Of a stretch of DNA of 64,000 nucleotides, positions 39,306 to 51,206 are shown piece by piece; position 1 is the first letter of the stretch, and the number at the start of each line of letters is the position of its first letter. The DNA is taken from assembly GCF_000316665.1 (NCBI RefSeq), contig NC_019678.1, forward strand, positions 7,473,001-7,537,000. Reading direction: 5' to 3'. The stretch is from Rivularia sp. PCC 7116 (GTDB taxonomy: Bacteria > Cyanobacteriota > Cyanobacteriia > Cyanobacteriales > Nostocaceae). The position numbers and the translations under genes were made by a program. The notes under the pieces were generated by a model, which had not been told where the DNA came from, made no database searches, and saw nothing but the letters and a program-made list of their open reading frames with translations.

Positions 39306-40928
39306 CTATTTATTAACCAAACAATCTTCTTCCAACTCAACTAATAAATCTTTTTCAATCGGTTGATTGGCGAGAATATCGTGTTTTAAATCTCCCCATT
39401 TTTTCCCGGATTTACTTTTATATAAGCTGATAATTTCGGGAATTTTTGGAGATATCATAACTCGTGCTGTTTCTAACTGTTCTAATAGTCTGGCTCGACG
39501 ATAGTGGTGTGATTTTTGCAATCCTTCTTCTAACTGCATGGCGATTTCTTCGGGATTATGTTCTGCATTATCCAGTAATAAAATATAATGCTCTTGGGGA
39601 TGTTTTACAGGTACTAAAGATTTAAAACAGCTTTCTTCTAAGGGTAAAGTTTCTAAGACATCGCGAACAAATTCGGAATGTAATTTTTCACCAACTAAAT
39701 CGCTGACTTCTTTTTTTCTGCCTACAAATTCCAGACAAGGTGTATTTAGGTATGAATGGGTAAAGCGTACTCTATCTCCGATGCGATAGCGGTAGAATCC
39801 ACCTTTTTGAGAGATAATTACTTCATATGTATTTCCCTGTTTTAATTGATGTAGCTGATAAACAAAGCCGCTTTCATCTAAAAACTCGAAAAATACTTCA
39901 TTAAGTAAAGGTACGCATCCTTTAGCAGGAATTAAGGGAATAGTCATTGGTGCTTCTGTTGCCAGAAGCCCTTTTCCCTGTACTAAAACATTGGGAAATA
40001 AAGAGCGTAAGAAATCGGCACCATCAGCAGCATTTGTACTATCCCAACAAGAAATTAGTTTTAATTCGCTCCATAAGAGATGCCAAGGAATTTTATTACT
40101 ATTAATTCTTTGTAATAGTTCGTTTAATTTCGGATTTGCAGATACTTGTTTGAATAAATGAGGCTGTAATAACATTAAACGTCGTCTTGCGGACATTACG
40201 TTTTTTAGTTCTAATGCTAATTGTTTGCGGTGTTGTTGAATATAATCAAGAATTACTTTGAGAAAAGTAGGACTCCAAATAGATATTATTTCTAGCTTAT
40301 CGGATTTTAAAAGTGTTTTTGCAAGCTGATGTTTAAACTTTTCGACATCATTGAGTTTATTTAAACCAGGTGGAGATACTAAAAAATTTCCAATTAAAAA
40401 TTTTAGCCACCCATCTAAATAGTCTGAATCATCTTGTAAAGATTGAGATTGAGATAAAGAGGATTTTTCTAATTCTACTTTTTCTTCTCCTAACTGCGGC
40501 GAAATACAAAAGTATATTTTGCCAGTAGTAAAATTAGGACCGTTTTTGATTAAATCGTGTGCCCATACACAGAACATTTTATTAAAAGAATGCCGTAAAG
40601 ATTTGGTATAGGGAATCGATTTAGCTGCACCGCTACTTCCAGAAGTTTTTTCATAAAAAATAACTCGTTCGGAAGAAAGCAAATGGGTTTTATCTTGCTG
40701 TTGTGTATGAATCCAATTCTCAATATTTTGGTATTCGACTATAGGAATTTTATGCCAGTCATCAATACTCTTTACCCGCAGATACCTGCCATAATCGCTT
40801 TTCATTAAGCTTTTAAATATTTCATTCTGTACTTTTTGCTGAGCAATTTGAGGATTTTCTAAAGCCTGGTAAAATTTATGGCTAGCGGATTCGGTTATTT
40901 TCTTGAACAGTTTTATTATGAAGTTCAT
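39306..40928 (-). CDS. GH3-family acyl-adenylate-forming enzyme
   Basis: This 540-residue protein is of the GH3 auxin-responsive family, which in plants links acyl acids (jasmonate, auxin, benzoates) to amino acids via an acyl-AMP. Adenylation motifs are visible: YEKTSGSSGAAKSIPYT near residues 92-108, YRYRIGDRVRF near 378-388, and LEFVGRKKEVSDLVGEKL near 397-414. Bacterial members are poorly studied. It is the last gene of the minus-strand cluster, 49 bp behind the acyltransferase. It would activate a carboxylic acid for amide or thioester formation; the acid and amine are unknown. Confidence 0.85.
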   Translation of the reverse strand: MNFIIKLFKKITESASHKFYQALENPQIAQQKVQNEIFKSLMKSDYGRYLRVKSIDDWHKIPIVEYQNIENWIHTQQQDKTHLLSSERVIFYEKTSGSSGAAKSIPYTKSLRHSFNKMFCVWAHDLIKNGPNFTTGKIYFCISPQLGEEKVELEKSSLSQSQSLQDDSDYLDGWLKFLIGNFLVSPPGLNKLNDVEKFKHQLAKTLLKSDKLEIISIWSPTFLKVILDYIQQHRKQLALELKNVMSARRRLMLLQPHLFKQVSANPKLNELLQRINSNKIPWHLLWSELKLISCWDSTNAADGADFLRSLFPNVLVQGKGLLATEAPMTIPLIPAKGCVPLLNEVFFEFLDESGFVYQLHQLKQGNTYEVIISQKGGFYRYRIGDRVRFTHSYLNTPCLEFVGRKKEVSDLVGEKLHSEFVRDVLETLPLEESCFKSLVPVKHPQEHYILLLDNAEHNPEEIAMQLEEGLQKSHHYRRARLLEQLETARVMISPKIPEIISLYKSKSGKKWGDLKHDILANQPIEKDLLVELEEDCLVNK

Positions 40929-40977
40929 ATTTTATTTAAATGGGTAATATTTATAAATTTTTTATAAATTTTTTAAA

Positions 40978-41631
40978 TTAATTTTGAAGTTTTTCTAGTT
41001 CAATCTTGTTGTTTGATAAGGTTGGAGAAATAATATTGTTTGGATACAAACGGCTTTCAGCAGATATAAAAGTTTCGTCTTTTATAATTACCCCAGGAGT
41101 AAGATAAGAACCTGCTCCGATAAAAACATCGTTACCAATTTTTATTTTTTTTACATACAGCATTAAATCCTGTTTTTTAGGCTTAATTGCATGGGATATC
41201 ACAGCGCAACTTTGACCAAAAACTACGCGATCGCCGATTTCAATTAAGGAACGATCTGCTATTTCTAGTTTGGGAGTCCAATAAACATTTTTACCAACTT
41301 TTGCTCCCCACAGTCGCAACCAGAATGAAAATGCCCCAGGAATCAAACGTAATCCTGATTCTAATACAGTAAAAGATATATATATAGACTGGATTTGATG
41401 ACTTCCCCACCAAGGAGAATATTGTTTACCTTTTAAATAACTAATTCCTTCTTCAAGGGGGTAGAAATAGTTATGTATTTTATGAATTAATAATGGGAAT
41501 CCATATAAGGTGAATAACAAAGCCGTAATGCTATAAAAGCTTGGTGATTGACAAATCCATAAGAAAGAAATGGATGATAGAAGCATTACAACACTAGGGA
41601 ATAAAAGAAGTATGGTGCTTTGTATAGTCAT
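40978..41631 (-). CDS. Left-handed beta-helix acyltransferase
   Basis: This 217-residue protein has two N-terminal hydrophobic helices (about residues 5-50), then a hexapeptide-repeat acyltransferase domain with LWGAKVGKNVYWTP, IEIGDRVVFGQSC, and KIGNDVFIGAGSYLTPGVIIKD. A His in AVISHAI near residue 148 is a possible catalytic base, as in xenobiotic/maltose acetyltransferase-type enzymes. The membrane segment suggests a lipid or membrane-bound acceptor. It lies between the GH3 gene (49 bp) and the sterol desaturase-type gene (201 bp). Confidence 0.75.
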   Translation of the reverse strand: MTIQSTILLLFPSVVMLLSSISFLWICQSPSFYSITALLFTLYGFPLLIHKIHNYFYPLEEGISYLKGKQYSPWWGSHQIQSIYISFTVLESGLRLIPGAFSFWLRLWGAKVGKNVYWTPKLEIADRSLIEIGDRVVFGQSCAVISHAIKPKKQDLMLYVKKIKIGNDVFIGAGSYLTPGVIIKDETFISAESRLYPNNIISPTLSNNKIELEKLQN

Positions 41632-41832
41632 GAATTTGAATATGGTAGTTGCTTAAATTCTGTATACTGATATCAAACTATTTCTTTTAAGACAGGTATA
41701 AATCCGGAATTGAGATAAATGAAACTACAGTTACTTTAAATTTTCTGCCTATAATATGAAGTTTTCACTGTATAATTACTCTTATATAGTAAATATGTTC
41801 TTACGTAAAATTACAAATTATTGCTTTTTACT

Positions 41833-42558
41833 TTAAAACGGTAAGAATAGTTTTTTGGTTAAAGATAAGGAATTATTAATACCTAATGAATCTGGAAGAT
41901 TTTCTGACTTGTAATAAGTCCCATGTAATTTATCCCACAGCTTCAAGTTTGCACCGTAGTTACCCTGCATGTAATCTGTCGAATGGTGCCAAGCATGGTC
42001 TTGTGGTAAAATCAACCACGGAGATACATAAGCATATATCCAAGAATCAAATTTCAGATTCAGGTTACTATGTCGCCACAAATCCAAAGCCGAACTTAAG
42101 CTGATACCTAAAATATACCAGTTCGGTTCTTCGAGCAAATATAAAAATAACGGGTGAATCCACAAATAAACAATTAAAAAACTCGTCCACAAAGTATTAC
42201 GGGAAGTTCCGAATACATCCATTTCTGTTACAGTGTGATGTACTTGATGGATAAACCACATGCTTTTGCTGTGGAATAGGCGATGATTCCAGTAATAGAG
42301 ATAATCCACAAATACAAAACTTAATAAAAAAGCCACTATAGGATGAATGTTTAGTGAAGCATGAGTATGTGGTAGCAAGAAATGATAAATTTGAAAAACA
42401 ACAGTTATTTGCAAAAACGGTATTACAATTCCTTGAAAAAATAAGCCAATACCGTCTAATAACCAATCTTCACCACTCTTTTTCCTGAATAGAAAGGGTT
42501 TATTGCTATTTGTAACGGTTAATGCTAGAAGAATTACGAACGTAAAGAAAACTAACAT
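41833..42558 (-). CDS. Sterol desaturase / fatty acid hydroxylase superfamily protein
   Basis: This 241-residue integral membrane diiron protein has the eight-histidine pattern of the fatty acid hydroxylase superfamily: WNHRLFH near residues 90-96, HQVHHT near 102-107, and HAWHHS near 187-192. Several hydrophobic helices precede them. Relatives oxidise sterols, sphingoid bases, carotenoids or, in saxitoxin clusters, an alkaloid (SxtD). It sits inside the minus-strand oxidative cluster, 123 bp downstream of a Rieske oxygenase gene. Confidence 0.88.
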   Translation of the reverse strand: MLVFFTFVILLALTVTNSNKPFLFRKKSGEDWLLDGIGLFFQGIVIPFLQITVVFQIYHFLLPHTHASLNIHPIVAFLLSFVFVDYLYYWNHRLFHSKSMWFIHQVHHTVTEMDVFGTSRNTLWTSFLIVYLWIHPLFLYLLEEPNWYILGISLSSALDLWRHSNLNLKFDSWIYAYVSPWLILPQDHAWHHSTDYMQGNYGANLKLWDKLHGTYYKSENLPDSLGINNSLSLTKKLFLPF

Positions 42559-42641
42559 ATTAATAAATCAGTTTCAATTTATACGATTTTTGGTTTATAT
42601 AGTCGCTATACTTTTCTCAGGTTCTACCTGGGAATTTTTTG

Positions 42642-42667
42642 GAAGTGGCTGCGCCACTTCTTTTTTT
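42642..42667 (+). terminator. Strong hairpin with T run, plus-strand orientation
   Basis: GAAGTGGC and GCCACTTC form a perfect stem with a 3-base loop (TGC), followed by eight T. Both flanking genes are on the minus strand, on which the hairpin is preceded by an A run and not followed by T. It may therefore block antisense transcription or serve as an RNA processing site in the operon gap. Confidence 0.6.
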
Positions 42668-42681
42668 GTGAATCTTTTCAT

Positions 42682-43704
42682 CTAAACCCAGAATTTTACC
42701 TCCACCGATTTATCGGCAAGCTGTCTGGGATCTTTTCCTGCTGCGATTTGGTTGCGAATAGACTCAACGAAAACATGGATAGTATCGGCAGGGGTATTAG
42801 CAAATTGCATTCCATATTTTTCAATTACTTCCCACTGAATCTTCAAAGCTTCGATATCCTGGCGAATAATATGCTGTGTAGTCCAATGTACCAAAGGTTT
42901 GACTAGTTTATTCCAAATGCCGTAATTGTAAGTTATGTAGGTATAGACTAGAGTTGAATTTTCGGTTTCGGGAACACATTGGCTGGTGATAAATAGTCTT
43001 CTATTGGGCGACATGTTGTATTCTACGCTGGTGACATTCGGCATGTGGAAGCTATCAGTATGACGAATTTTATAACCTTTACGATTAAGAAATTTGCTAA
43101 ACCATCCCAGATTAGTTGTTTCGTTACGGTATTCTGCAAATACGCTGCCACTGCGTCTTTCTACCGTCATTTCTAGTTGTTGTTTTTTTGAGTTGCGGAA
43201 AATTCCAGGATGTACGGAAGCCGTATGAGGAACATCAATAAAATTTTCTGCACAATTGGTAACGTTGTTGTTAAAGCGATTGATTACTTTCACAGTTTCC
43301 CATCCCGGCTGTTGGTAAAGAGGCATTTTGAAAGGTGTAAACTCCTCTGAAGGCTGGGAAGATAAGCGCACGTAAATATAGCCATCTTGTTCTTTTGTTT
43401 GGTAAAGTTGGCATCTTGCCATTTTGCTTTGACATAAGTTATTTGCTTGGGAAGGAACTTTCACTACTCTTCCGGTATTATCGTAAACCCATCCGTGGTA
43501 AGGGCATTCTATTTTCCCTTGACAAACTTTACCTTTTGATAAGCGACTATTTCTGTGAATGCACCTATCTCGTAAAGCAACGGGTTTACCGTCTTCCCCA
43601 CGGAATATTGCCAGCCATTCACCTAAAATTGTCCGAGACAAAACTTTATTTGGCTTTAATTGATTGCTCAATGCAACAACATACCAAAAATCTTCAAATT
43701 TCAT
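42682..43704 (-). CDS. Rieske oxygenase, PaO/LLS1-like
   Basis: This 340-residue protein has an N-terminal Rieske [2Fe-2S] domain with CIH at 48-50 and CPYH at 67-70. A catalytic domain carries the mononuclear iron site NFIDVPHTASVH (His160 and His165, bridging Asp near 157). The spacing is that of the pheophorbide a oxygenase / aromatic ring-hydroxylating alpha-subunit group. It lies 24 bp after the ferredoxin gene, its likely electron donor. No ring-hydroxylating beta subunit is present, so it would act as a stand-alone oxygenase. Substrate unknown. Confidence 0.88.
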   Translation of the reverse strand: MKFEDFWYVVALSNQLKPNKVLSRTILGEWLAIFRGEDGKPVALRDRCIHRNSRLSKGKVCQGKIECPYHGWVYDNTGRVVKVPSQANNLCQSKMARCQLYQTKEQDGYIYVRLSSQPSEEFTPFKMPLYQQPGWETVKVINRFNNNVTNCAENFIDVPHTASVHPGIFRNSKKQQLEMTVERRSGSVFAEYRNETTNLGWFSKFLNRKGYKIRHTDSFHMPNVTSVEYNMSPNRRLFITSQCVPETENSTLVYTYITYNYGIWNKLVKPLVHWTTQHIIRQDIEALKIQWEVIEKYGMQFANTPADTIHVFVESIRNQIAAGKDPRQLADKSVEVKFWV

Positions 43705-43705
43705 A

Positions 43706-43735
43706 AATTAGTTGTTAGTTGTTAGTTGTTAGTTT
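43706..43735. repeat. Short STRR heptamer run overlapping the ferredoxin stop
   Basis: Three to four TTAGTTG units fill the 24 bp between the Rieske and ferredoxin genes. Such repeats are rare inside an operon-like gene string. Confidence 0.7.
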
Positions 43736-44016
43736 TTATTAATTTTAATATCGTTGGTAAGCTGAATTTGGCAAGCTAGTCTTGCCTTTGGATTTTCTGG
43801 AGCTAATATTTCTAAAAGTTCTTTTTCTGCTTCTGATGCAGGTGGAATATCACCATCAATAATTACAAGGCAAGTGCCACAAATTCCGGTGCGGCAACCG
43901 AAAAGTATTGGTGAATTTTCGACAGTTAAATGTTCGGATAAATTTTGGTTGGCTTCTAATTCAACTGATTGATAATTAGTTTCTGGAAATTGGATATTAC
44001 ATTTTTTTTTAGACAT
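43729..44016 (-). CDS. Plant-type [2Fe-2S] ferredoxin
   Basis: This 95-residue protein has the plant-type ferredoxin cluster motif: Cys41, Cys46 and Cys49 in GCRTGICGTC, and a fourth Cys near residue 82 in RLACQ. It is a small electron carrier of the cytoplasm. Lying between two Rieske oxygenase genes (24 and 29 bp gaps), it probably feeds electrons to them. No matching ferredoxin reductase gene is in the window; the photosynthetic FNR or photosystem I could reduce it. Confidence 0.92.
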   Translation of the reverse strand: MSKKKCNIQFPETNYQSVELEANQNLSEHLTVENSPILFGCRTGICGTCLVIIDGDIPPASEAEKELLEILAPENPKARLACQIQLTNDIKINKN

Positions 44017-44045
44017 GAAAGATAATGTGATTAACTTATTTATAA

Positions 44046-45092
44046 TTACGACATTTCATTTTCAACTGACCAAATAGAAGGTTGAAGTTGATTTACATAG
44101 CTCATATATTTAACTAAAGGTTCGTCAATATTTAAAATAGCGTTTGGATTATAGCGAATATTGTCGTAAATCATTCCGTCTTCACCTCGTAAAAAATAGT
44201 AAGCAAGTTTTGTCATCACTAGCAAAAATCTACTTATAAAAAATCCAATCAATCCCGGTCTTTTTTTAGTTATATAAATTGGTTGAATTTTAGTTTTTGT
44301 ACTTTCGAGAGGTGTATAAGCGTAAATCATATGTAGCGGCGGTATGAATTTAACTTTTTTCATGATAGTTAGCAATCCCAAGCAACCATCGGCATATCTC
44401 ATGGTGTATTCATAATAGTTGCCAAGTATCTTGCTTGCTATTTTTTCTCTAAATGTAGTTTTAGGAAATTCGCCACCAAGAGTAAAATCTATAATATTTC
44501 CAGATTGATTTTTGTGTAGAGATAAATCCATTTTTATATTCAATTTATGCACGGTTTGTAGATGTTGGGCATCGATTCCGTTCATCATACAAATATGGTG
44601 GTGACAGTTTCGTTCAAAAGCTTTATCGTATTTAACGACAAGAGATTGATGCTTTAACTCGTCAAATTCTGCAACTTGTTCGGGTGCTGCTAAATCTGGA
44701 TAAACCCAAATAAATCCATATTTCTCAGCAGTAGCGTAAGCTTGTAATTTAGCTTTTGCAGGAATATTTGACTGACAGGGAATATCTTGACATTTTCCTT
44801 CGCCATTAAAAGCCCAATGATGAAAAAAACAACGAATTAAGTTACCATCAACTTTTCCTATAGCTAAATCTGTTCCTAAATGAGGACAATAAGCATCTAA
44901 TGCTCTTATTTTCTTATCTTTACCGCGAAAAATTACAATTTTTTGACCGCAAACGATAAAAGATTTAGCTTGATTCAGAGTTATTTCTGTAATCGGACAA
45001 ACTATATACCAACCTTTTGCAACAATATCCCAATTGTTGAAGATTTTCATTTCGATCAAGGGTTGAGTATTTTGGTTTTGTAATGAGTTCAT
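44046..45092 (-). CDS. Rieske oxygenase, KshA/Neverland-like
   Basis: This 348-residue protein has a Rieske centre with YCPH (Cys69, His71) and CFFH (Cys88, His91), and an iron-binding motif MNGIDAQHLQTVH with two His and an Asp. Near the C terminus a hydrophobic stretch (GFFISRFLLVMTKLAYYFL) may contact the membrane. It resembles the 364-residue Rieske protein at 48041-49135 along its whole length (shared ITKKRPG / VTKKRGG and IDAxH motifs), so the two are paralogues. This subgroup includes steroid 9-hydroxylase and cholesterol 7-desaturase. Substrate is unknown. Confidence 0.88.
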   Translation of the reverse strand: MNSLQNQNTQPLIEMKIFNNWDIVAKGWYIVCPITEITLNQAKSFIVCGQKIVIFRGKDKKIRALDAYCPHLGTDLAIGKVDGNLIRCFFHHWAFNGEGKCQDIPCQSNIPAKAKLQAYATAEKYGFIWVYPDLAAPEQVAEFDELKHQSLVVKYDKAFERNCHHHICMMNGIDAQHLQTVHKLNIKMDLSLHKNQSGNIIDFTLGGEFPKTTFREKIASKILGNYYEYTMRYADGCLGLLTIMKKVKFIPPLHMIYAYTPLESTKTKIQPIYITKKRPGLIGFFISRFLLVMTKLAYYFLRGEDGMIYDNIRYNPNAILNIDEPLVKYMSYVNQLQPSIWSVENEMS

Positions 45093-45151
45093 ATATTCAA
45101 TTTAGCGATGCTGTTGTAAATTATTTAAAGAATTATATACTTTGCTGATTA

Positions 45152-45337
45152 CTATTTGCTCTTGGAATCCAGTATAAACAGCATTGAACCTATGGTAAAA
45201 AATATTCCGCCACAACAGGAAGAAATAGAGTGAAATGATATCTCCTGAAATAAATCCAGAAAAGAGTTCATTGTTAACAGAAGAGAACCAATTAAAAATA
45301 GATAACTTGCCAACAGAGTGTAATTAATTCTTTTCAT
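45152..45337 (-). CDS. Small two-helix membrane protein
   Basis: This 61-residue protein has two hydrophobic helices: about residues 7-27 (LLASYLFLIGSLLLTMNSFL) and about 40-57 (SCCGGIFFTIGSMLFILD). The phi-I-G-S-phi-L-F patterns recall the YrhK-like small membrane domain. It lies between the AurF-like gene (18 bp) and a Rieske gene (59 bp), so it is translated as part of the cluster. It might anchor or dock one of the oxygenases; that is inference. Confidence 0.6.
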   Translation of the reverse strand: MKRINYTLLASYLFLIGSLLLTMNSFLDLFQEISFHSISSCCGGIFFTIGSMLFILDSKSK

Positions 45338-45355
45338 ATTGATTATTTGTAATTA

Positions 45356-46531
45356 TCAATTACTTGCTAACCATTTTTTAAAATTTATTCTTTGCTCGTT
45401 TAAATATCTAGAAATTGAATTTGCAGCCATAAAAGACATTTCGCGGTTACTTTTCCATAGATAATCCAAAGATTCAACATAAACTTTATAGGATTCCATT
45501 GCTTCATGATGAGTTTGAAAGCTATTATGTAATGCTTCCGTCTCCTGTGTAAAACAACGGCGGATCGTATCTTTCGCTTCAGTGTCGCTCATCCCAAAAA
45601 CTTGCGATCGCAACAGCCGGTAAATAGCTGGGTACAGTGCAGCATCGTACCAAAATATACCGTTAACTGCGATTGAACAATGGTAATGGTCTTTTTGGCA
45701 ACCTCGTATTCCTAAATTTGCAACAACTTTCTCAAATTTTGTCGGGGGTTTGATGCATTGAATCACATCATGGGAGATTATCGTGGAACTGTTGAAATGA
45801 AAACTTTCATCCATGAAGTGATAGTAAGAAATTTTTGCCGGTATAGGTGCATTATCTGGATTATTGTGGTTTTGATAGTAATTGCTGAGCTTATGTTGAA
45901 TTAACTTGCCGTTAAGAGTACGCAAACCCCTTACCGTAAAATATTGACAAGCTAGAAAAGTATTATCTGCCGAAATTAATCCGAAAGCTTGTAGTTGCAG
46001 TTTTTTCCATTGAGTTTTGAGAAAGTTAGTATCGGCAAATACCATAGTTTCAGTATATGGTCCGCGCATAGGATAAGTAAATATGCGTTCTCCAAATAGC
46101 GTCGATTCAACTTGATGAGAAATTGTTTTGAAAGCGTTGATATGACAGCGTTCCTGGGCTGATTCTAAATCGAGCATATCGCATATTACCCGGAAATCCT
46201 CTTGGGCGTAAAGTCCGGCTGCACTAGTTTGATTGAATAGAATAGTTGCTATTTCAGCAGAAATTATTTGGCAATAATAAGCTACCCAGTAAAGTTGATT
46301 GAGAATTATTCTTTGACTTTGACTGGCTTGCGTCCACAGAGGTGTACCGTAGAGTAAAGAATATTGTTCGGGGTTCCAGTATTCATCTTTGCAATCATCA
46401 TAGTTAAAAGCAGCAGCAGCTTTATCTAATAATTCCGTACAGTCTTGTTGTTTGTTACGCTTATAGTTGATTTGCAGTTTACCGTAGACTTTTCTATTTG
46501 CTAAAAGCGTATTTTCTTTGGTTTCAATCAT
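45356..46531 (-). CDS. AurF-like diiron oxygenase
   Basis: This protein of about 391 residues has the helical diiron signature with two ExxH motifs, ERCH near residues 127-130 and ESFH near 242-245. Further acidic ligands are likely in SAEIATILFNQ near 92-102 and GPYTE near 157-161. The layout fits the AurF (p-aminobenzoate N-oxygenase) group, which oxidises amines to nitro or hydroxylamine groups. The ATG at 46531 leaves a 19-bp gap to the upstream gene; a GTG at 46561 would overlap that gene by 11 bp. N-oxygenation is an inference; C-hydroxylation is also possible. Confidence 0.7.
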   Translation of the reverse strand: MIETKENTLLANRKVYGKLQINYKRNKQQDCTELLDKAAAAFNYDDCKDEYWNPEQYSLLYGTPLWTQASQSQRIILNQLYWVAYYCQIISAEIATILFNQTSAAGLYAQEDFRVICDMLDLESAQERCHINAFKTISHQVESTLFGERIFTYPMRGPYTETMVFADTNFLKTQWKKLQLQAFGLISADNTFLACQYFTVRGLRTLNGKLIQHKLSNYYQNHNNPDNAPIPAKISYYHFMDESFHFNSSTIISHDVIQCIKPPTKFEKVVANLGIRGCQKDHYHCSIAVNGIFWYDAALYPAIYRLLRSQVFGMSDTEAKDTIRRCFTQETEALHNSFQTHHEAMESYKVYVESLDYLWKSNREMSFMAANSISRYLNEQRINFKKWLASN

Positions 46532-46550
46532 ATAATTATCGCTTCTTTTT

Positions 46551-47471
46551 CTATAAAACACATAAGCTTGCTTTTAAAGGTTGAAAGTAACCTTTATTTT
46601 CTAAACTATTTATGACGCTAGTTGCATTAGGTAGATGCATTAAGCTGTGCAATTTTTTTAAGCGAATTCCGCTATGATTCTGCGTATCTAATTGTTCAAA
46701 AATATTGATTTTTTCTTCTCTAGATAAACTGCCTTTGACTTGTTCGATTGCTTTGACAACACTTTGAGGTCCTACTTGCACCATTTGCAAAAATACTGCC
46801 AGTATTTCTGTAATAGTTTCTCTACTCAATTTAGTTAAAGATATTTTTTCAAATAGGGTTACACCAGTCGCATGATGGCGACTTTCATCTTGCAAAAAAC
46901 TATTAAGCGTAGAACGTAATTGAATATTTTGACAATGCTTTGCAATACTACGATAATGAGTCAAACCCCATCCTTCTAAAACTACTTGAAGTACAAATAA
47001 TAGTACTTTTTTATCATTACTTTCTACTACTTCTTCTAGTAAATTTAAAAATGGACTGTTGTTTATTTTTGGAACCGGCAAAAAACCGCTAATTTTTGAA
47101 AAATGATTAACTTCATCAGCAGCAAATAAACCGTAAAGCATTCTTTCTTCAGTTGTTTCTGCGAGTAAAATCATTTTTGCCATATATCCGACTCCAGCTT
47201 TTTCAATGAAATAAGCTTCCTTCAAAATTTCTAAGTTGCAAAGCTGTAAAATCAATCTTTTTTCCGTGGCTGTAGATTCTTGAAAAATGTTGACTTTATG
47301 CAAGTTGAAATATTCTTGATTCCAGTAGTTAAGTGGGGTTTCATTTTTTGCGTTTTTTTCGCTTAAAATATCTCCTTGATTATCCAATGCGGCAGATAAA
47401 ATTCTATTGAGCTTATCTTCTCGATCTATATGAGGTAAATCTAATCTAGCAACAGTATTTTGTTTATTCAT
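46551..47471 (-). CDS. Ferritin-like diiron protein with paired ExxH motifs
   Basis: This helical protein of about 306 residues shows EVNH near 120-123 and ESRH near 196-199, with additional Glu ligands likely in EILKEAYFIE near 81-90 and at VVLEGW near 166. That is the ligand set of ferritin-like diiron oxygenases. It is not obviously a close paralogue of the AurF-like neighbour, so two distinct diiron enzymes sit side by side. The start is the ATG at 47471; the open frame extends 26 codons upstream but with intergenic-type repeat sequence. Function unknown. Confidence 0.7.
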   Translation of the reverse strand: MNKQNTVARLDLPHIDREDKLNRILSAALDNQGDILSEKNAKNETPLNYWNQEYFNLHKVNIFQESTATEKRLILQLCNLEILKEAYFIEKAGVGYMAKMILLAETTEERMLYGLFAADEVNHFSKISGFLPVPKINNSPFLNLLEEVVESNDKKVLLFVLQVVLEGWGLTHYRSIAKHCQNIQLRSTLNSFLQDESRHHATGVTLFEKISLTKLSRETITEILAVFLQMVQVGPQSVVKAIEQVKGSLSREEKINIFEQLDTQNHSGIRLKKLHSLMHLPNATSVINSLENKGYFQPLKASLCVL

Positions 47472-47618
47472 GATTTCAACGTTTAAAAAATTACAATTTA
47501 ATTGTGGGGTAGGCATCCTTGCCTGTCCAAATGTAAAATTTAAATGCACAACAGCCAGTTGTTCTCGTGCAATCAGAATTGATATTTAATTTAAAAATCC
47601 GCAGCCCCAACTACGACT

Positions 47619-47876
47619 TTAATTTTCTGAATTTGGACACACAGAAATAACCATAGGGTGAGAAGTATCTTCAGGAATAGGTTCTTTCGGTAAAAGCATT
47701 GGATGTGAATCTTCCTCAGCTTGATTTCTGGTAATTTTATTTCCTGGAACTAAAATCTCAGAATCTTGGTGCAAACAAATATCAGCTTTGTGATGGGAAT
47801 TTACTCCGCAGGCAGCAAACGTAATTACCAAAAACGAATTGAAAAGCACCGAGGGAACTGTAAGAAATCTTTTCAT
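47619..47876 (-). CDS. Small putative lipoprotein
   Basis: This 85-residue protein begins with a signal peptide (MKRFLTVPSVLFNSFLVITF) and a lipobox-like FAACG, with the lipidated Cys at about residue 23. The mature part is about 60 residues, hydrophilic, rich in Pro, Glu and His, with two similar SHPM units (DSHPMLLPKEP and DTSHPMVISV) and two further Cys. It is embedded in the minus-strand oxidative cluster. The function is unknown; the Met/His content could suit metal binding, a guess only. Confidence 0.55.
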   Translation of the reverse strand: MKRFLTVPSVLFNSFLVITFAACGVNSHHKADICLHQDSEILVPGNKITRNQAEEDSHPMLLPKEPIPEDTSHPMVISVCPNSEN

Positions 47877-47961
47877 ATTTCAAGATAAAACTCCTATATT
47901 TCTTGTAATTGTTGTGCTTATATCAACCTTCAATCCCGTTGTTTCATTTTTAGTAACGTCT

Positions 47962-47979
47962 GCGGGCAATATTGCCCGC
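47962..47979. terminator. Perfect 18-bp palindrome in the cluster
   Basis: GCGGGCAAT joins directly to ATTGCCCGC, giving a GC-rich hairpin in the 164-bp gap between the 364-residue Rieske gene and the small lipoprotein gene. No T run follows on either strand. It may act as a weak terminator or a repeat. Confidence 0.45.
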
Positions 47980-48040
47980 TTCTAATGCTCACTGCAAAGC
48001 TGATAATTAAGCAGATGTATATATATTGGCTGTTAAGCTG

Positions 48041-49135
48041 TCAATCATTTGCTTCTCCTTTAGATTCCACCATTTCTATTTTCTTTTGCCGTTGTCTTTC
48101 TTCTTCTTCGTTTACAGGCTCCCAACTACCCCAACGCAAACCTTTTTGTTTTTCTACATTGTGGATAAATTGCAAAATTGCATTATCTGCTTTAGTTGGT
48201 GTTTGAAAGTCAAAATTAATCGTTTGAAAAATCTGGGTATCCCCTTTCGCGAAATAGTTTCCTACTAATTTCGTTAGCCACAGCACCACCCTGTTAAACA
48301 GCCAACCGAAAACACCGCCACGTTTTTTGGTAACTAAAATAGTTTGCCCTTCTGTTTTCCCTCCTTCAAGCAAACGTAAGGCGAACATAATATGAAAATG
48401 CAGAAAATCGGGCCCTATAGTTACTGTACCAATAGTTCCATACCAATAGCACATACTATAAGTAACGGCTTTTTTATAGAAAGGGCGGATTAATTTCATC
48501 AAAAATGAATCTTCACCACCCCTAGTAACGTTGTTAAAAACGATGGCATTTTCGTTCAGTTGCTGCTTGCGAAAAACAATCTCTAAAGGTAGATTGTGAA
48601 CCGTATTGAAATGATGTGCATCAATCGCATTAATCATCACCACATTTGGGTGACAGTTTTTTACGAACCCAGAAGTTATAGCACTATCACATTCAAAATT
48701 TTCTAATTCTGGAACAAAAGGCAAAGATTGTGAAGGAGTTTCACCAGTCCAAACCCATACCATGCCGTACTTTTCGGCAACATGCCAGGTTTTCAACTCC
48801 AAGGGAAGCCCAGTTCCCAAGCAAGGAACATCAACACAATCACCTTTACTATTAAATTTCCAATTATGGAATAAACAACGCAATCCCTCACCTTCGACTT
48901 TGCCTTCTGCAAGATGAGCGCCCATATGGGGACAGTAAGCGTCAAAGCAAACCAGTTTACCGTTGATATCTCGATAAATTGCTAGCTCTCTACCCAGTAA
49001 CGAAACAGCTCGTACCTGCCCTTTTCGTAGCTTTCTTGCAGGAATAGCCCAGTACCAACCTTCAACGAAACGTCTGGGATGATTAAATATTTGCGTGTAA
49101 CGATATGAGCTAATATTATTTGATACGACTTTCAT
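48041..49135 (-). CDS. Rieske oxygenase, KshA/Neverland-like paralogue
   Basis: This 364-residue protein has the Rieske ligands CPH (Cys68, His70) and CLFH (Cys87, His90), and the mononuclear iron motif INAIDAHHFNTVH. It parallels the Rieske protein at 44046-45092 throughout, including the VTKKRGGVFGW segment and a hydrophobic region near residue 290. No beta subunit gene is present. The C-terminal 25 residues are strongly charged (EEERQRQKKIE). It would act on the same or a successive intermediate as its paralogue. Confidence 0.88.
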   Translation of the reverse strand: MKVVSNNISSYRYTQIFNHPRRFVEGWYWAIPARKLRKGQVRAVSLLGRELAIYRDINGKLVCFDAYCPHMGAHLAEGKVEGEGLRCLFHNWKFNSKGDCVDVPCLGTGLPLELKTWHVAEKYGMVWVWTGETPSQSLPFVPELENFECDSAITSGFVKNCHPNVVMINAIDAHHFNTVHNLPLEIVFRKQQLNENAIVFNNVTRGGEDSFLMKLIRPFYKKAVTYSMCYWYGTIGTVTIGPDFLHFHIMFALRLLEGGKTEGQTILVTKKRGGVFGWLFNRVVLWLTKLVGNYFAKGDTQIFQTINFDFQTPTKADNAILQFIHNVEKQKGLRWGSWEPVNEEEERQRQKKIEMVESKGEAND

Positions 49136-49282
49136 GTCATTTTCATTACCGGAATTTCCGGGCTGTAAAGAAGTTGTATGTAAAGGCGCTATATCTAAGA
49201 TGAAAAGTTTTTAGCATGGTAAAAGCAATCCAACTCAAAACTATTCAACGCCTATATTTCAACCCAACCGCATTTTTTCGAT

Positions 49283-50035
49283 CTAAGCCGGAATTTTTAA
49301 GATTGAATTTTTATTTATGCCTTGATTGCTTCTATCTGCAAACCACATTCTACGTCCGGCACGGGTAAGATTTTCTTCACAAATTTCCGTAAAACAGACT
49401 AGTTCATCGCCATTTAAATGACCGGGATTAAGCGCCTGAAAATACTGAATGTGCGGATCTCGCAATCTTTGAGCGGGTATACCATGCAAGCCATCGCGCA
49501 GTATGTGGGGATGGGGAAAACGCACTACACCGGTTGTGATATTGTAATTTTCGCCAAAACGTTTAACAGCCAAATCCTGCATTAAATATAAAATACGTTC
49601 CGGGGTAGGAGTATCGTAACGAGGATAAAACTCTTTCCAAAATAACGGCAAAAAACGATAGGTGCGATAACCGCCAGAAATCAATAGCCAGTAAAGTTTA
49701 CCCGTACAGTATTCGTTTCGCAGTTGATTTATTGAAGATATCCAACCAGCAGATAGCGCCGAACTAGACCAAGCACTAGGATCTACAATCGTATCTCCCG
49801 AAAATACAATGCTGATTTTTTCATCTTCAAAATAGGTATCGTACATTAGCAATGTCGAAAACCCTTTCAATTGATTTGTTTGTTCATCTTTGATTAAAAT
49901 TACCCAGTTTTTACTATCTAAGTCATTGTTGAATATATCTCTTTTAACTCCTTTAAAATGTTTGCTCAATAGCATAAACATTGCTTCTAAATCTAAATCC
50001 GATAATTCTTCAGTCCTAATTAATTCGCTATTCAT
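49283..50035 (-). CDS. GNAT-like acyltransferase domain protein
   Basis: This 250-residue protein looks like a GNAT-fold protein in its first 130 residues: an opening LSDLDLEAMFMLLSKHF helix, then beta strands with WVILIKDEQTNQLKGFSTLLMYD and ISIVFSGDTIVDP. The classical acetyl-CoA loop (Q/RxxGxG/A) is not obvious, so activity is unproved. The C-terminal half (RFPHPHILRDGLHGIP and later) has no match that I know. It is the first gene of the minus-strand cluster and so lies nearest to the presumed promoter region at 50036-50789. Confidence 0.55.
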   Translation of the reverse strand: MNSELIRTEELSDLDLEAMFMLLSKHFKGVKRDIFNNDLDSKNWVILIKDEQTNQLKGFSTLLMYDTYFEDEKISIVFSGDTIVDPSAWSSSALSAGWISSINQLRNEYCTGKLYWLLISGGYRTYRFLPLFWKEFYPRYDTPTPERILYLMQDLAVKRFGENYNITTGVVRFPHPHILRDGLHGIPAQRLRDPHIQYFQALNPGHLNGDELVCFTEICEENLTRAGRRMWFADRSNQGINKNSILKIPA

Positions 50036-50789: not shown

Positions 50790-51206
50790 ATGCTGGCTAA
50801 TACAAGCGAACCGTTGTTAATAGGCAAAGTCCAAAAGCTTAGTGGGGTTCCGATTCGGACAATTCGCTATTACGAGACTTTGGGCATTATTAAACCATTA
50901 GGAAGAACTGAAAGTGGTTACAGAAAGTTTTCCCAAGATATACTGGCTCGATTATCATTTATCAAACGCGCTCAAAAACTTGGGTTAAGTTTGCAAGAAA
51001 TCGGTAGTATTCTTCAAGTTTATGACGATGGTGAAGCTCCATGCGATCAAATTCACTATCAACTGGAAAATAAAATATTGGAAATTGAAAAGCAGATTCA
51101 AAATTTACAGGTATTACAAAACGAATTAAAGGAATTGCTGTTGGGCTGGAAGAGTGTGTCTAACAAGCCAAGTAATATGATTTGTCCAAATATTCAGAAA
51201 AATTGA
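50790..51206 (+). CDS. MerR-family transcriptional regulator
   Basis: This 138-residue protein has the MerR winged helix-turn-helix: LLIGKVQKLSGVPIRTIRYYETLGII near residues 9-34, then GYRKF and the ILARLSFIKRAQKLGLSLQEIG helix. A C-terminal coiled coil covers about 90-118. Metal-sensing members use cysteines at the end of the DNA-binding part and at the C terminus; here Cys85 (EAPC) and Cys132 (MICP) fit that pattern with His89 nearby. It could sense a thiophilic metal. It lies divergent from the oxidative cluster and may control it, though nothing proves this. Confidence 0.88.
   Translation: MLANTSEPLLIGKVQKLSGVPIRTIRYYETLGIIKPLGRTESGYRKFSQDILARLSFIKRAQKLGLSLQEIGSILQVYDDGEAPCDQIHYQLENKILEIEKQIQNLQVLQNELKELLLGWKSVSNKPSNMICPNIQKN

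What the first reader, a model, noticed from the sequence alone, without database searches (positions are those of the whole stretch)
39306..50035. Candidate undescribed oxidative biosynthetic cluster without PKS or NRPS
Twelve same-strand genes in 10.7 kb encode a GH3-type acyl-adenylating enzyme, two acyltransferase-like proteins, a sterol-desaturase-type hydroxylase, three Rieske oxygenases, a ferredoxin, two ExxH diiron proteins, a small lipoprotein and a small membrane protein. At least six are iron-dependent oxidation enzymes. Rieske, ferredoxin and SxtD-type genes also occur together in saxitoxin clusters, but no sxtA, sxtG or sxtB homologue is here. The product may be an oxidised acyl-amide or lipid; that part is inference.
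Basis: partly seen in the sequence, partly recalled or inferred. Interest (0 to 1): 0.78.

Follow-up and report, generated by a model that had tools for sequence, protein, structure and literature searches.

The report
Conserved cyanobacterial oxidative lipid-amide gene cluster
A block of ten oxidation, acyl-transfer and amide-forming genes is kept together in many cyanobacteria and probably makes one unknown small molecule; such blocks were reported in 2021 as an orphan class, but a likely amide-forming step and an unusual halogenase-like enzyme make it newly testable.

Summary
In detail: twelve minus-strand genes lie at 39306-50035. Ten form a real unit. In the 80 best relatives fetched by the AurF-like gene (E), each of the other nine recurs nearby in 50 to 75 loci, while twelve window genes outside the block recur in 0 to 4. 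The small lipoprotein and membrane protein are not core (4 and 3 of 80). In 243 genomes of the order, E and a close GH3 ligase occur in exactly the same 37 genomes, even where the two lie far apart. 'Undescribed' is wrong: this is the 'Rieske-containing' orphan class of CylC-homolog clusters of Eusebio et al. 2021 (PMC8406957), product unknown. Beyond that paper's main text: a GH3 amide ligase and a GNAT-fold transferase belong to it, though the paper saw no substrate activation there; E carries both dimetal-halogenase motifs, but the ninth residue essential in NocO is Gln in 80 of 80, against Glu in 15 of 15 CylC-type relatives; some clusters add an Mpo1-like 2-hydroxy-fatty-acid dioxygenase and an amidohydrolase. 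Best reading: oxidative tailoring of an amide-linked fatty acyl compound without a carrier protein. The chemistry is inferred.

The parts
49283..50035 (-). A: GNAT-fold acyltransferase (250 aa), first gene of the block
   Evidence: No Pfam match; AlphaFold2 pLDDT 87.8, Foldseek GNAT hits; in 63 of 80 loci
48041..49135 (-). B: Rieske oxygenase 1
   Evidence: Pfam Rieske; nearest solved KshA, SxtDIOX, SxtT; C68 H70 C87 H90 D172 H175 H180 D299 in 74 of 74 rows; 73 of 80 loci
47619..47876 (-). C: small lipoprotein-like protein; not core
   Evidence: no Pfam hit; only 4 of 80 loci
46551..47549 (-). D: ferritin-like diiron protein (start probably internal, at the ATG of residue 27; inference)
   Evidence: Ferritin_2 at threshold; E111, E116, E146, H149, E192, E222, H225 in 74 of 74 rows; 75 of 80 loci
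45356..46561 (-). E: CylC/AurF-like dimetal enzyme, Gln at position 222 (start probably internal, at residue 11; inference)
   Evidence: ExxQExxH and HxxDExxH in 79 of 79 orthologues; Q222 in 80 of 80 rows against Glu in 15 of 15 CylC-type
45152..45337 (-). F: small YrhK-like membrane protein; not core
   Evidence: Pfam YrhK E=3.1e-7; 3 of 80 loci
44046..45092 (-). G: Rieske oxygenase 2
   Evidence: Pfam Rieske; near-invariant Cys/His/Asp set; 62 of 80 loci
43729..44016 (-). H: 2Fe-2S ferredoxin, likely electron donor
   Evidence: Pfam Fer2; four near-invariant Cys; 71 of 80 loci
42682..43704 (-). I: Rieske oxygenase 3, VanA-type
   Evidence: Pfam Rieske and VanA_C; nearest solved SxtDIOX, SxtT, NdmA, DdmC; 66 of 80 loci
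41833..42558 (-). J: fatty acid hydroxylase / sterol desaturase family
   Evidence: Pfam FA_hydroxylase; NCBIfam OlsE 67 bits against cut-off 475; near-invariant His residues; 59 of 80 loci
40978..41631 (-). K: hexapeptide-repeat acyl/acetyltransferase
   Evidence: Pfam Hexapep; in the same 37 genomes as E plus one; 54 of 80 loci
39306..40928 (-). L: GH3-family acyl-adenylating amide ligase
   Evidence: Pfam GH3, GH3_M, GH3_C; plant GH3 structures, best E=9.3e-19; close homologue in exactly the 37 genomes that hold E; 50 of 80 loci
50790..51206 (+). Divergent MerR regulator, possible local regulator, not core
   Evidence: Pfam MerR; 4 of 80 loci

Best explanation
The block encodes one dedicated pathway that makes and oxidatively tailors an amide-linked fatty acyl (or similar acyl) small molecule, with no PKS, NRPS or carrier protein among its genes. 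Proposed steps: the fatty acid hydroxylase J, or fatty acid metabolism, supplies an oxygenated acyl acid; GH3 ligase L adenylates a free carboxylate and joins it to an amine; GNAT-fold A and hexapeptide K add acyl groups to N or O; Rieske enzymes B, G and I, fed by ferredoxin H, and the diiron proteins D and E oxidise the scaffold. E is a derived CylC-type dimetal enzyme working on an untethered substrate; chlorination and oxygenation both remain open. Shown: the unit, its gene families, conserved catalytic residues, co-occurrence. Inferred: substrate, order of steps, product.
For: Block kept in relatives while twelve outside genes are not. E and a close GH3 occur in the same 37 of 243 genomes over 12 families, K in these plus one; in two genomes E and GH3 are 0.95 and 2.9 Mb apart on one contig yet both present. 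Gene order is shuffled between lineages but membership is largely kept. Catalytic residues conserved. L is solidly a GH3, and a bacterial GH3, OlsH, makes N-acyl ornithine (PMC12493201, passages). E: both halogenase motifs. In 26 of 80 loci an Mpo1-like 2-hydroxy-fatty-acid dioxygenase gene stands next to G, and an amidohydrolase lies nearby in 20, pointing to fatty acids and amides. An A homologue stands beside a divergent GH3 in six genomes without E.
Against: No substrate or product is known. GH3, hydroxylase and GNAT families are broad; the nearest curated families OlsH (28 of 620 bits) and OlsE (67 of 475) fall far below their cut-offs. L is absent from 12 of 51 well-covered loci, K from 9 and J from 6. 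A is looser than E, K and L: in 13 of the 37 genomes only a distant A homologue was found (222-233 bits against 351-416 in the other 24), and in the eight of those 13 fetched at the A site it stands away from any other cluster gene. The window genome has no Mpo1-like gene, so that clue holds only for other lineages. Co-occurrence and similar distance matrices (r 0.84-0.97) partly reflect shared ancestry.
Confidence: 0.45

Rival explanations
1. The block makes a modified membrane aminolipid, working like the planctomycete OlsH/OlsI route and the OlsE hydroxylase: GH3 forms an N-acyl amino acid, other enzymes acylate and hydroxylate it in the membrane.
For: Nearest curated families for L and J are OlsH and OlsE; A has a GNAT fold; OlsH precedent (passages).
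Against: Both matches are far below cut-off. Six oxygenase-type proteins, one of them CylC-like, exceed what known ornithine lipids need (recalled). No methyltransferase was seen among the 45 commonest neighbour families listed (by eye, no domain search), and an alpha/beta hydrolase (OlsI is one) forms a family in only 7 of 80 loci (hits in 8), on the other strand.
Confidence: 0.2
2. E is not a halogenase: with Gln at the ninth essential position it acts as an oxygenase, desaturase or N-oxygenase, and the cluster product contains no halogen.
For: Q222 fixed in 80 of 80 rows; the aligned residue is Glu in 15 of 15 CylC-type, where it lies exactly 30 residues before the motif Asp, as NocO E252 does before D282. 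The E252A variant of NocO is inactive (PMC12101540, passages). The residue after the last His ligand is Phe instead of Thr, also fixed.
Against: ExxQExxH, which AurF lacks and which marks halogenases (PMC12871659, passages), is intact in 79 of 79. Wang et al. found that E252A keeps its iron, so this residue may be a hydrogen-bond acceptor, a role Gln can fill; they also note Gln in a small subset of homologues.
Confidence: 0.4
3. A non-lipid alkaloid pathway, saxitoxin-like in its use of several Rieske enzymes and a ferredoxin.
For: B and I match SxtT and SxtDIOX among solved structures.
Against: B matches KshA slightly better, and I matches NdmA and DdmC nearly as well; the fatty-acid-type enzyme J, and in 26 loci an Mpo1-like gene, recur in the neighbourhood.
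Confidence: 0.1
4. Neighbouring but unrelated transcription units.
For: Two modules (A-B-D-E and H to L) can separate or invert, as in L129, L146, L150 and L065, L066.
Against: Identical phyletic sets of E and close GH3 and near-identical set of K, even when dispersed; outside genes not conserved.
Confidence: 0.02

Closest known systems
Rieske-containing CylC-homolog clusters (Eusebio et al. 2021, PMC8406957)
   Same: CylC homolog with two to four Rieske proteins and usually a sterol desaturase family protein, chiefly in Nostocales and Oscillatoriales, no known product; the paper also notes the same functions dispersed over the genome in Synechocystis
   Different: That paper reports no substrate-activating enzyme in these neighbourhoods; here GH3 is a consistent partner. 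Its supplementary gene maps were not readable here, so gene-by-gene identity is unchecked.
CylC / NocO dimetal (diiron) halogenases
   Same: ExxQExxH and HxxDExxH motifs; AurF is the best, though weak, fold match
   Different: Separate clade (SH-aLRT 100, quick tree); Gln for Glu at the ninth site; no carrier protein reported beside this class (PMC8406957)
OlsH (planctomycete GH3, N-acyl ornithine synthetase)
   Same: Bacterial GH3 family enzyme
   Different: 28 bits against cut-off 620; different neighbours
Mpo1 2-hydroxy fatty acid dioxygenase (PF06127)
   Same: Neighbour gene in 26 of 80 loci; family assigned through one representative and the L129 fusion
   Different: Absent from the window genome; function by family name only

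Membership tests
Rieske-containing CylC-homolog cluster class | a CylC homolog (single in most) | tested here: met
   E is the only match of the E profile in the window genome at E<=0.001
Rieske-containing CylC-homolog cluster class | two to four Rieske proteins | tested here: met
   three
Rieske-containing CylC-homolog cluster class | sterol desaturase family protein in most | tested here: met
   J, FA_hydroxylase
Rieske-containing CylC-homolog cluster class | this exact locus or its gene order in the published supplementary figures | not testable with these tools
Dimetal (diiron) halogenase | ExxQExxH and HxxDExxH | tested here: met
   79 of 79 orthologues over 300 aa
Dimetal (diiron) halogenase | ninth residue Glu (NocO E252); Gln in a small published subset | tested here: not met
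   Gln in 80 of 80 rows against Glu in 15 of 15 CylC-type; in the 15 the Glu is 30 residues before the motif Asp, here the Gln is 29 before it; NocO itself was not aligned
Dimetal (diiron) halogenase | halide-dependent product | not testable with these tools
   needs enzyme or culture
GH3 acyl-amido synthetase | three GH3 domains and adenylation residues | tested here: met
   T95 S96 G97, K103, E325, Y381, D385 in 48 of 48 rows; that these are nucleotide-binding motifs is recalled
OlsH equivalog | curated NCBIfam cut-off | tested here: not met
   28.2 of 620 bits
GNAT acyltransferase (gene A) | GNAT fold | tested here: met
Saxitoxin cluster | sxtA, sxtG, sxtB homologues | not tested
   the twelve genes' families are; the genome was not searched for these genes

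The most novel reading that the evidence does not exclude
E is the first member of a carrier-protein-free branch of the dimetal halogenase family: it functionalises an unactivated C-H bond of a free, GH3-made acyl amide, with Gln replacing the Glu needed by ACP-dependent halogenases, within a widespread cyanobacterial lipid-amide pathway whose product is unknown.
Probability: 0.3. Interest if true: 0.75.

Novelty: new member of a known kind. Interest (0 to 1): 0.5.

Why it matters
The class was the commonest CylC-homolog cluster type in the 2021 survey (36 of 95 classified), yet has no product. An amide ligase that travels with E suggests what to look for (acyl amides, with or without halogen). 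The fixed Glu-to-Gln difference bears directly on what separates halogenation from oxygenation in diiron enzymes, and an enzyme that needs no carrier protein would be useful as a biocatalyst.

Tried and rejected
Chance neighbours: rejected by the flank control and phyletic sets. C as a peptide precursor: looked at by eye only, for its repeated SHPM letters; it recurs in 4 of 80 loci, so dropped. Plasmid spread: tblastn of E in the plasmid collection found 4 records, all under 32% identity, so no evidence for it. Rfam: no hit in the window at gathering thresholds; no tRNA. Profile searches of solved structures gave no match for E, only chance-level ones for D (best E=0.076) and A (E=0.37). The E model is only fair (pLDDT 68.2); best Foldseek hit AurF, E=0.19, probability 0.99, so metal-site geometry was not argued from it. 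Literature searches for a product of this class or for GH3 in it gave the 2021 paper as the only one on this class; most subscription journals are not in that library, and most other papers were seen only as listings.

Results against tidy conservation: of 51 loci with at least 9 kb on both sides of E, 38 hold all eight of B, D, E, H, I, J, K, L and 32 hold all ten with A and G. L079 keeps only E and G. Of the 40 neighbourhoods first fetched by D: B 36, E 35, H 30, I 29, J 26, K 26, G 25, L 25, A 23 (several loci are short contigs). The D set (E-value 1e-70 or better, 40 of the 46 genomes with any hit) has three genomes beyond E (G029, G137, G220); in G137 and G220 the D homologue has Lys for the Glu at position 192 and no other cluster gene near. 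GH3 membership was cut at 45% identity over 200 residues in the best piece; weaker GH3 homologues are in the other 70 of the 107 genomes with any hit. In 13 of the 37 genomes A is only a distant homologue.
Full report
OBSERVATION. The twelve genes are present on the minus strand at 39306-50035. Families: GH3 (L), hexapeptide transferase (K), FA_hydroxylase (J), Rieske with VanA_C (I), Fer2 (H), Rieske (G, B), YrhK-like small membrane protein (F), weak AurF (E), borderline Ferritin_2 (D), no Pfam hit for C and A. A has a GNAT fold by prediction and structure comparison. The genome is 8.73 Mb in three contigs; the nearest E sequence is in a Rivularia metagenome-assembled genome, 94% identical. 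That the genome may be Rivularia sp. PCC 7116 is recall, not a result.

A REAL UNIT. D was found in 46 of 243 genomes of the order. I fetched neighbourhoods of 40 relatives (the tally gives B 36, E 35, H 30, I 29, J 26, K 26, G 25, L 25, A 23 of 40). A profile of E then found 149 relatives in named genomes, of which the best 80 were returned, so the sample leans to near relatives. In those 80 loci: E 80 (by construction), D 75, B 73, H 71, I 66, A 63, G 62, J 59, K 54, L 50, C 4, F 3. Many loci are cut by contig ends; among 51 with at least 9 kb on both sides of E the counts are E 51, B 50, D 50, H 50, A 47, G 47, I 47, J 45, K 42, L 39, C 2, F 2; 38 hold eight core genes and 32 all ten. Twelve window genes outside the block recur in 0 to 4 of the 80. 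Gene order differs between lineages: A and G move, and in L129, L146 and L150 part of the block is inverted.

CO-OCCURRENCE. In the same draw of 243 genomes, E of this clade (over 700 bits) is in 37 genomes from 12 families. GH3 at 45% identity or more over 200 residues is in exactly those 37; K (E-value 1e-20 or better) is in those 37 plus G029. A is in those 37 plus eight, one of the eight a negligible hit (G134, E=7e-4); but in 13 of the 37 the A homologue is distant (222-233 bits against 351-416 in the other 24). I fetched the A site of eight of these 13, and there no other cluster gene was near; in a ninth, G008, it lies downstream of GH3 (L086). D (1e-70 or better) is in those 37 plus three. 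In several genomes GH3 is far from E: about 955 kb in G036 and 2.9 Mb in G240 on the same contig, 36 kb in G163, and on other contigs in G015, G028, G043, G078 (for G028 the E contig is only 6.5 kb, so this may be an assembly break). PMC8406957 had already noted such dispersal in Synechocystis. Shared ancestry inflates any p-value, so the Fisher values are not used as evidence strength; the argument is the matching sets despite dispersal.

ENZYME E. The published halogenase signature is QExxH (as ExxQExxH in a 2026 preprint) and HxxDExxH, part of nine residues, each essential for chlorination in NocO (PMC12101540 and PMC12871659, passages only). Both motifs are in 79 of 79 orthologues. The ninth residue, AurF E196 and NocO E252, lies 30 residues before the motif Asp by the published numbers; in 15 of 15 CylC-type relatives a Glu lies exactly there. 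The aligned residue in this clade is Gln in 80 of 80 rows (79 orthologues and the window), 29 residues before the Asp and three after an invariant Lys (K219) shared by both groups. NocO itself was not aligned. PMC12101540 notes that a small subset of homologues has Gln; that these are the Rieske class is my inference. Other fixed differences include Phe for Thr after the last His ligand. A quick tree separates the two groups (SH-aLRT 100).

OTHER ENZYMES. Rieske and mononuclear-iron type residues, the ferritin-like ligand set of D, histidines of J, the ferredoxin cysteines and GH3 adenylation residues are invariant or nearly so (which residues bind iron or nucleotide is recalled from the families). 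B is nearest KshA, SxtDIOX and SxtT among solved structures; I is nearest SxtDIOX, SxtT, NdmA and DdmC, which is superfamily resemblance only. GH3 matches plant GH3 structures, JAR1 best.

EXTRA PARTS IN RELATIVES. In 26 of 80 loci an Mpo1-like gene stands next to G (representative L131: PF06127, 35.9 bits, cut-off 24); an amidohydrolase is nearby in 20; in L129 one 730-residue frame holds both domains. The window genome has no PF06127 hit. In six genomes without E (G037, G060, G014, G170, G180, G127) an A homologue lies within about 3 kb of a divergent GH3, with a VanA-type Rieske in four of the six; in G127 the A frame is broken and in G180 the GH3 frame beside A is short. One of these loci (L176) also has an RnfD/FG-GAP/UnbV protein and a fatty acid desaturase. 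This supports A and GH3 working together, but also shows that A is not specific to this block.

WHAT IS KNOWN. PMC8406957 (abstract, outline, section 19 in full, passages elsewhere; [quoted passage not shown] The window is a member. The GH3 link, the GNAT assignment, the fixed Gln and the Mpo1/amidohydrolase variants go beyond what I saw of its main text; its supplements could not be read. PMC12493201 (passages) shows that a bacterial GH3 forms N-acyl ornithine. Searches for a later product of this class or for GH3 in it showed none in the open-access library.

VERDICT. A real, widely conserved, functionally orphan pathway, already recognised as a class but not understood. The likeliest product is an oxidised fatty acyl amide, at moderate confidence.

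Noticed in passing
L176-L181: A second arrangement in six genomes without E: GNAT-like A beside a divergent GH3, in four with a VanA-type Rieske; L176 also holds an RnfD/FG-GAP/UnbV protein and a fatty acid desaturase.
   Followed up: partly
L129:15027-17219: One reading frame holds amidohydrolase and Mpo1-like domains, which are separate genes in other loci.
   Followed up: partly
L063 and L064: Lone D homologues with Lys in place of the Glu at position 192 and no cluster gene nearby, perhaps decayed or repurposed copies.
   Followed up: no
L068:8911-15767: K-D-A triplet without E, B or GH3 nearby, next to genes that look by eye like a DevBCA-type exporter.
   Followed up: no
L144: A contig binned as a planctomycete carries B, D, E, H and I; transfer or misbinning not resolved.
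   Followed up: no
L154-L157: CylC-type relatives with Glu at the ninth site, next to a ferredoxin gene 41-44% identical to H; a PKS-like protein lies nearby in L155 (by eye).
   Followed up: no
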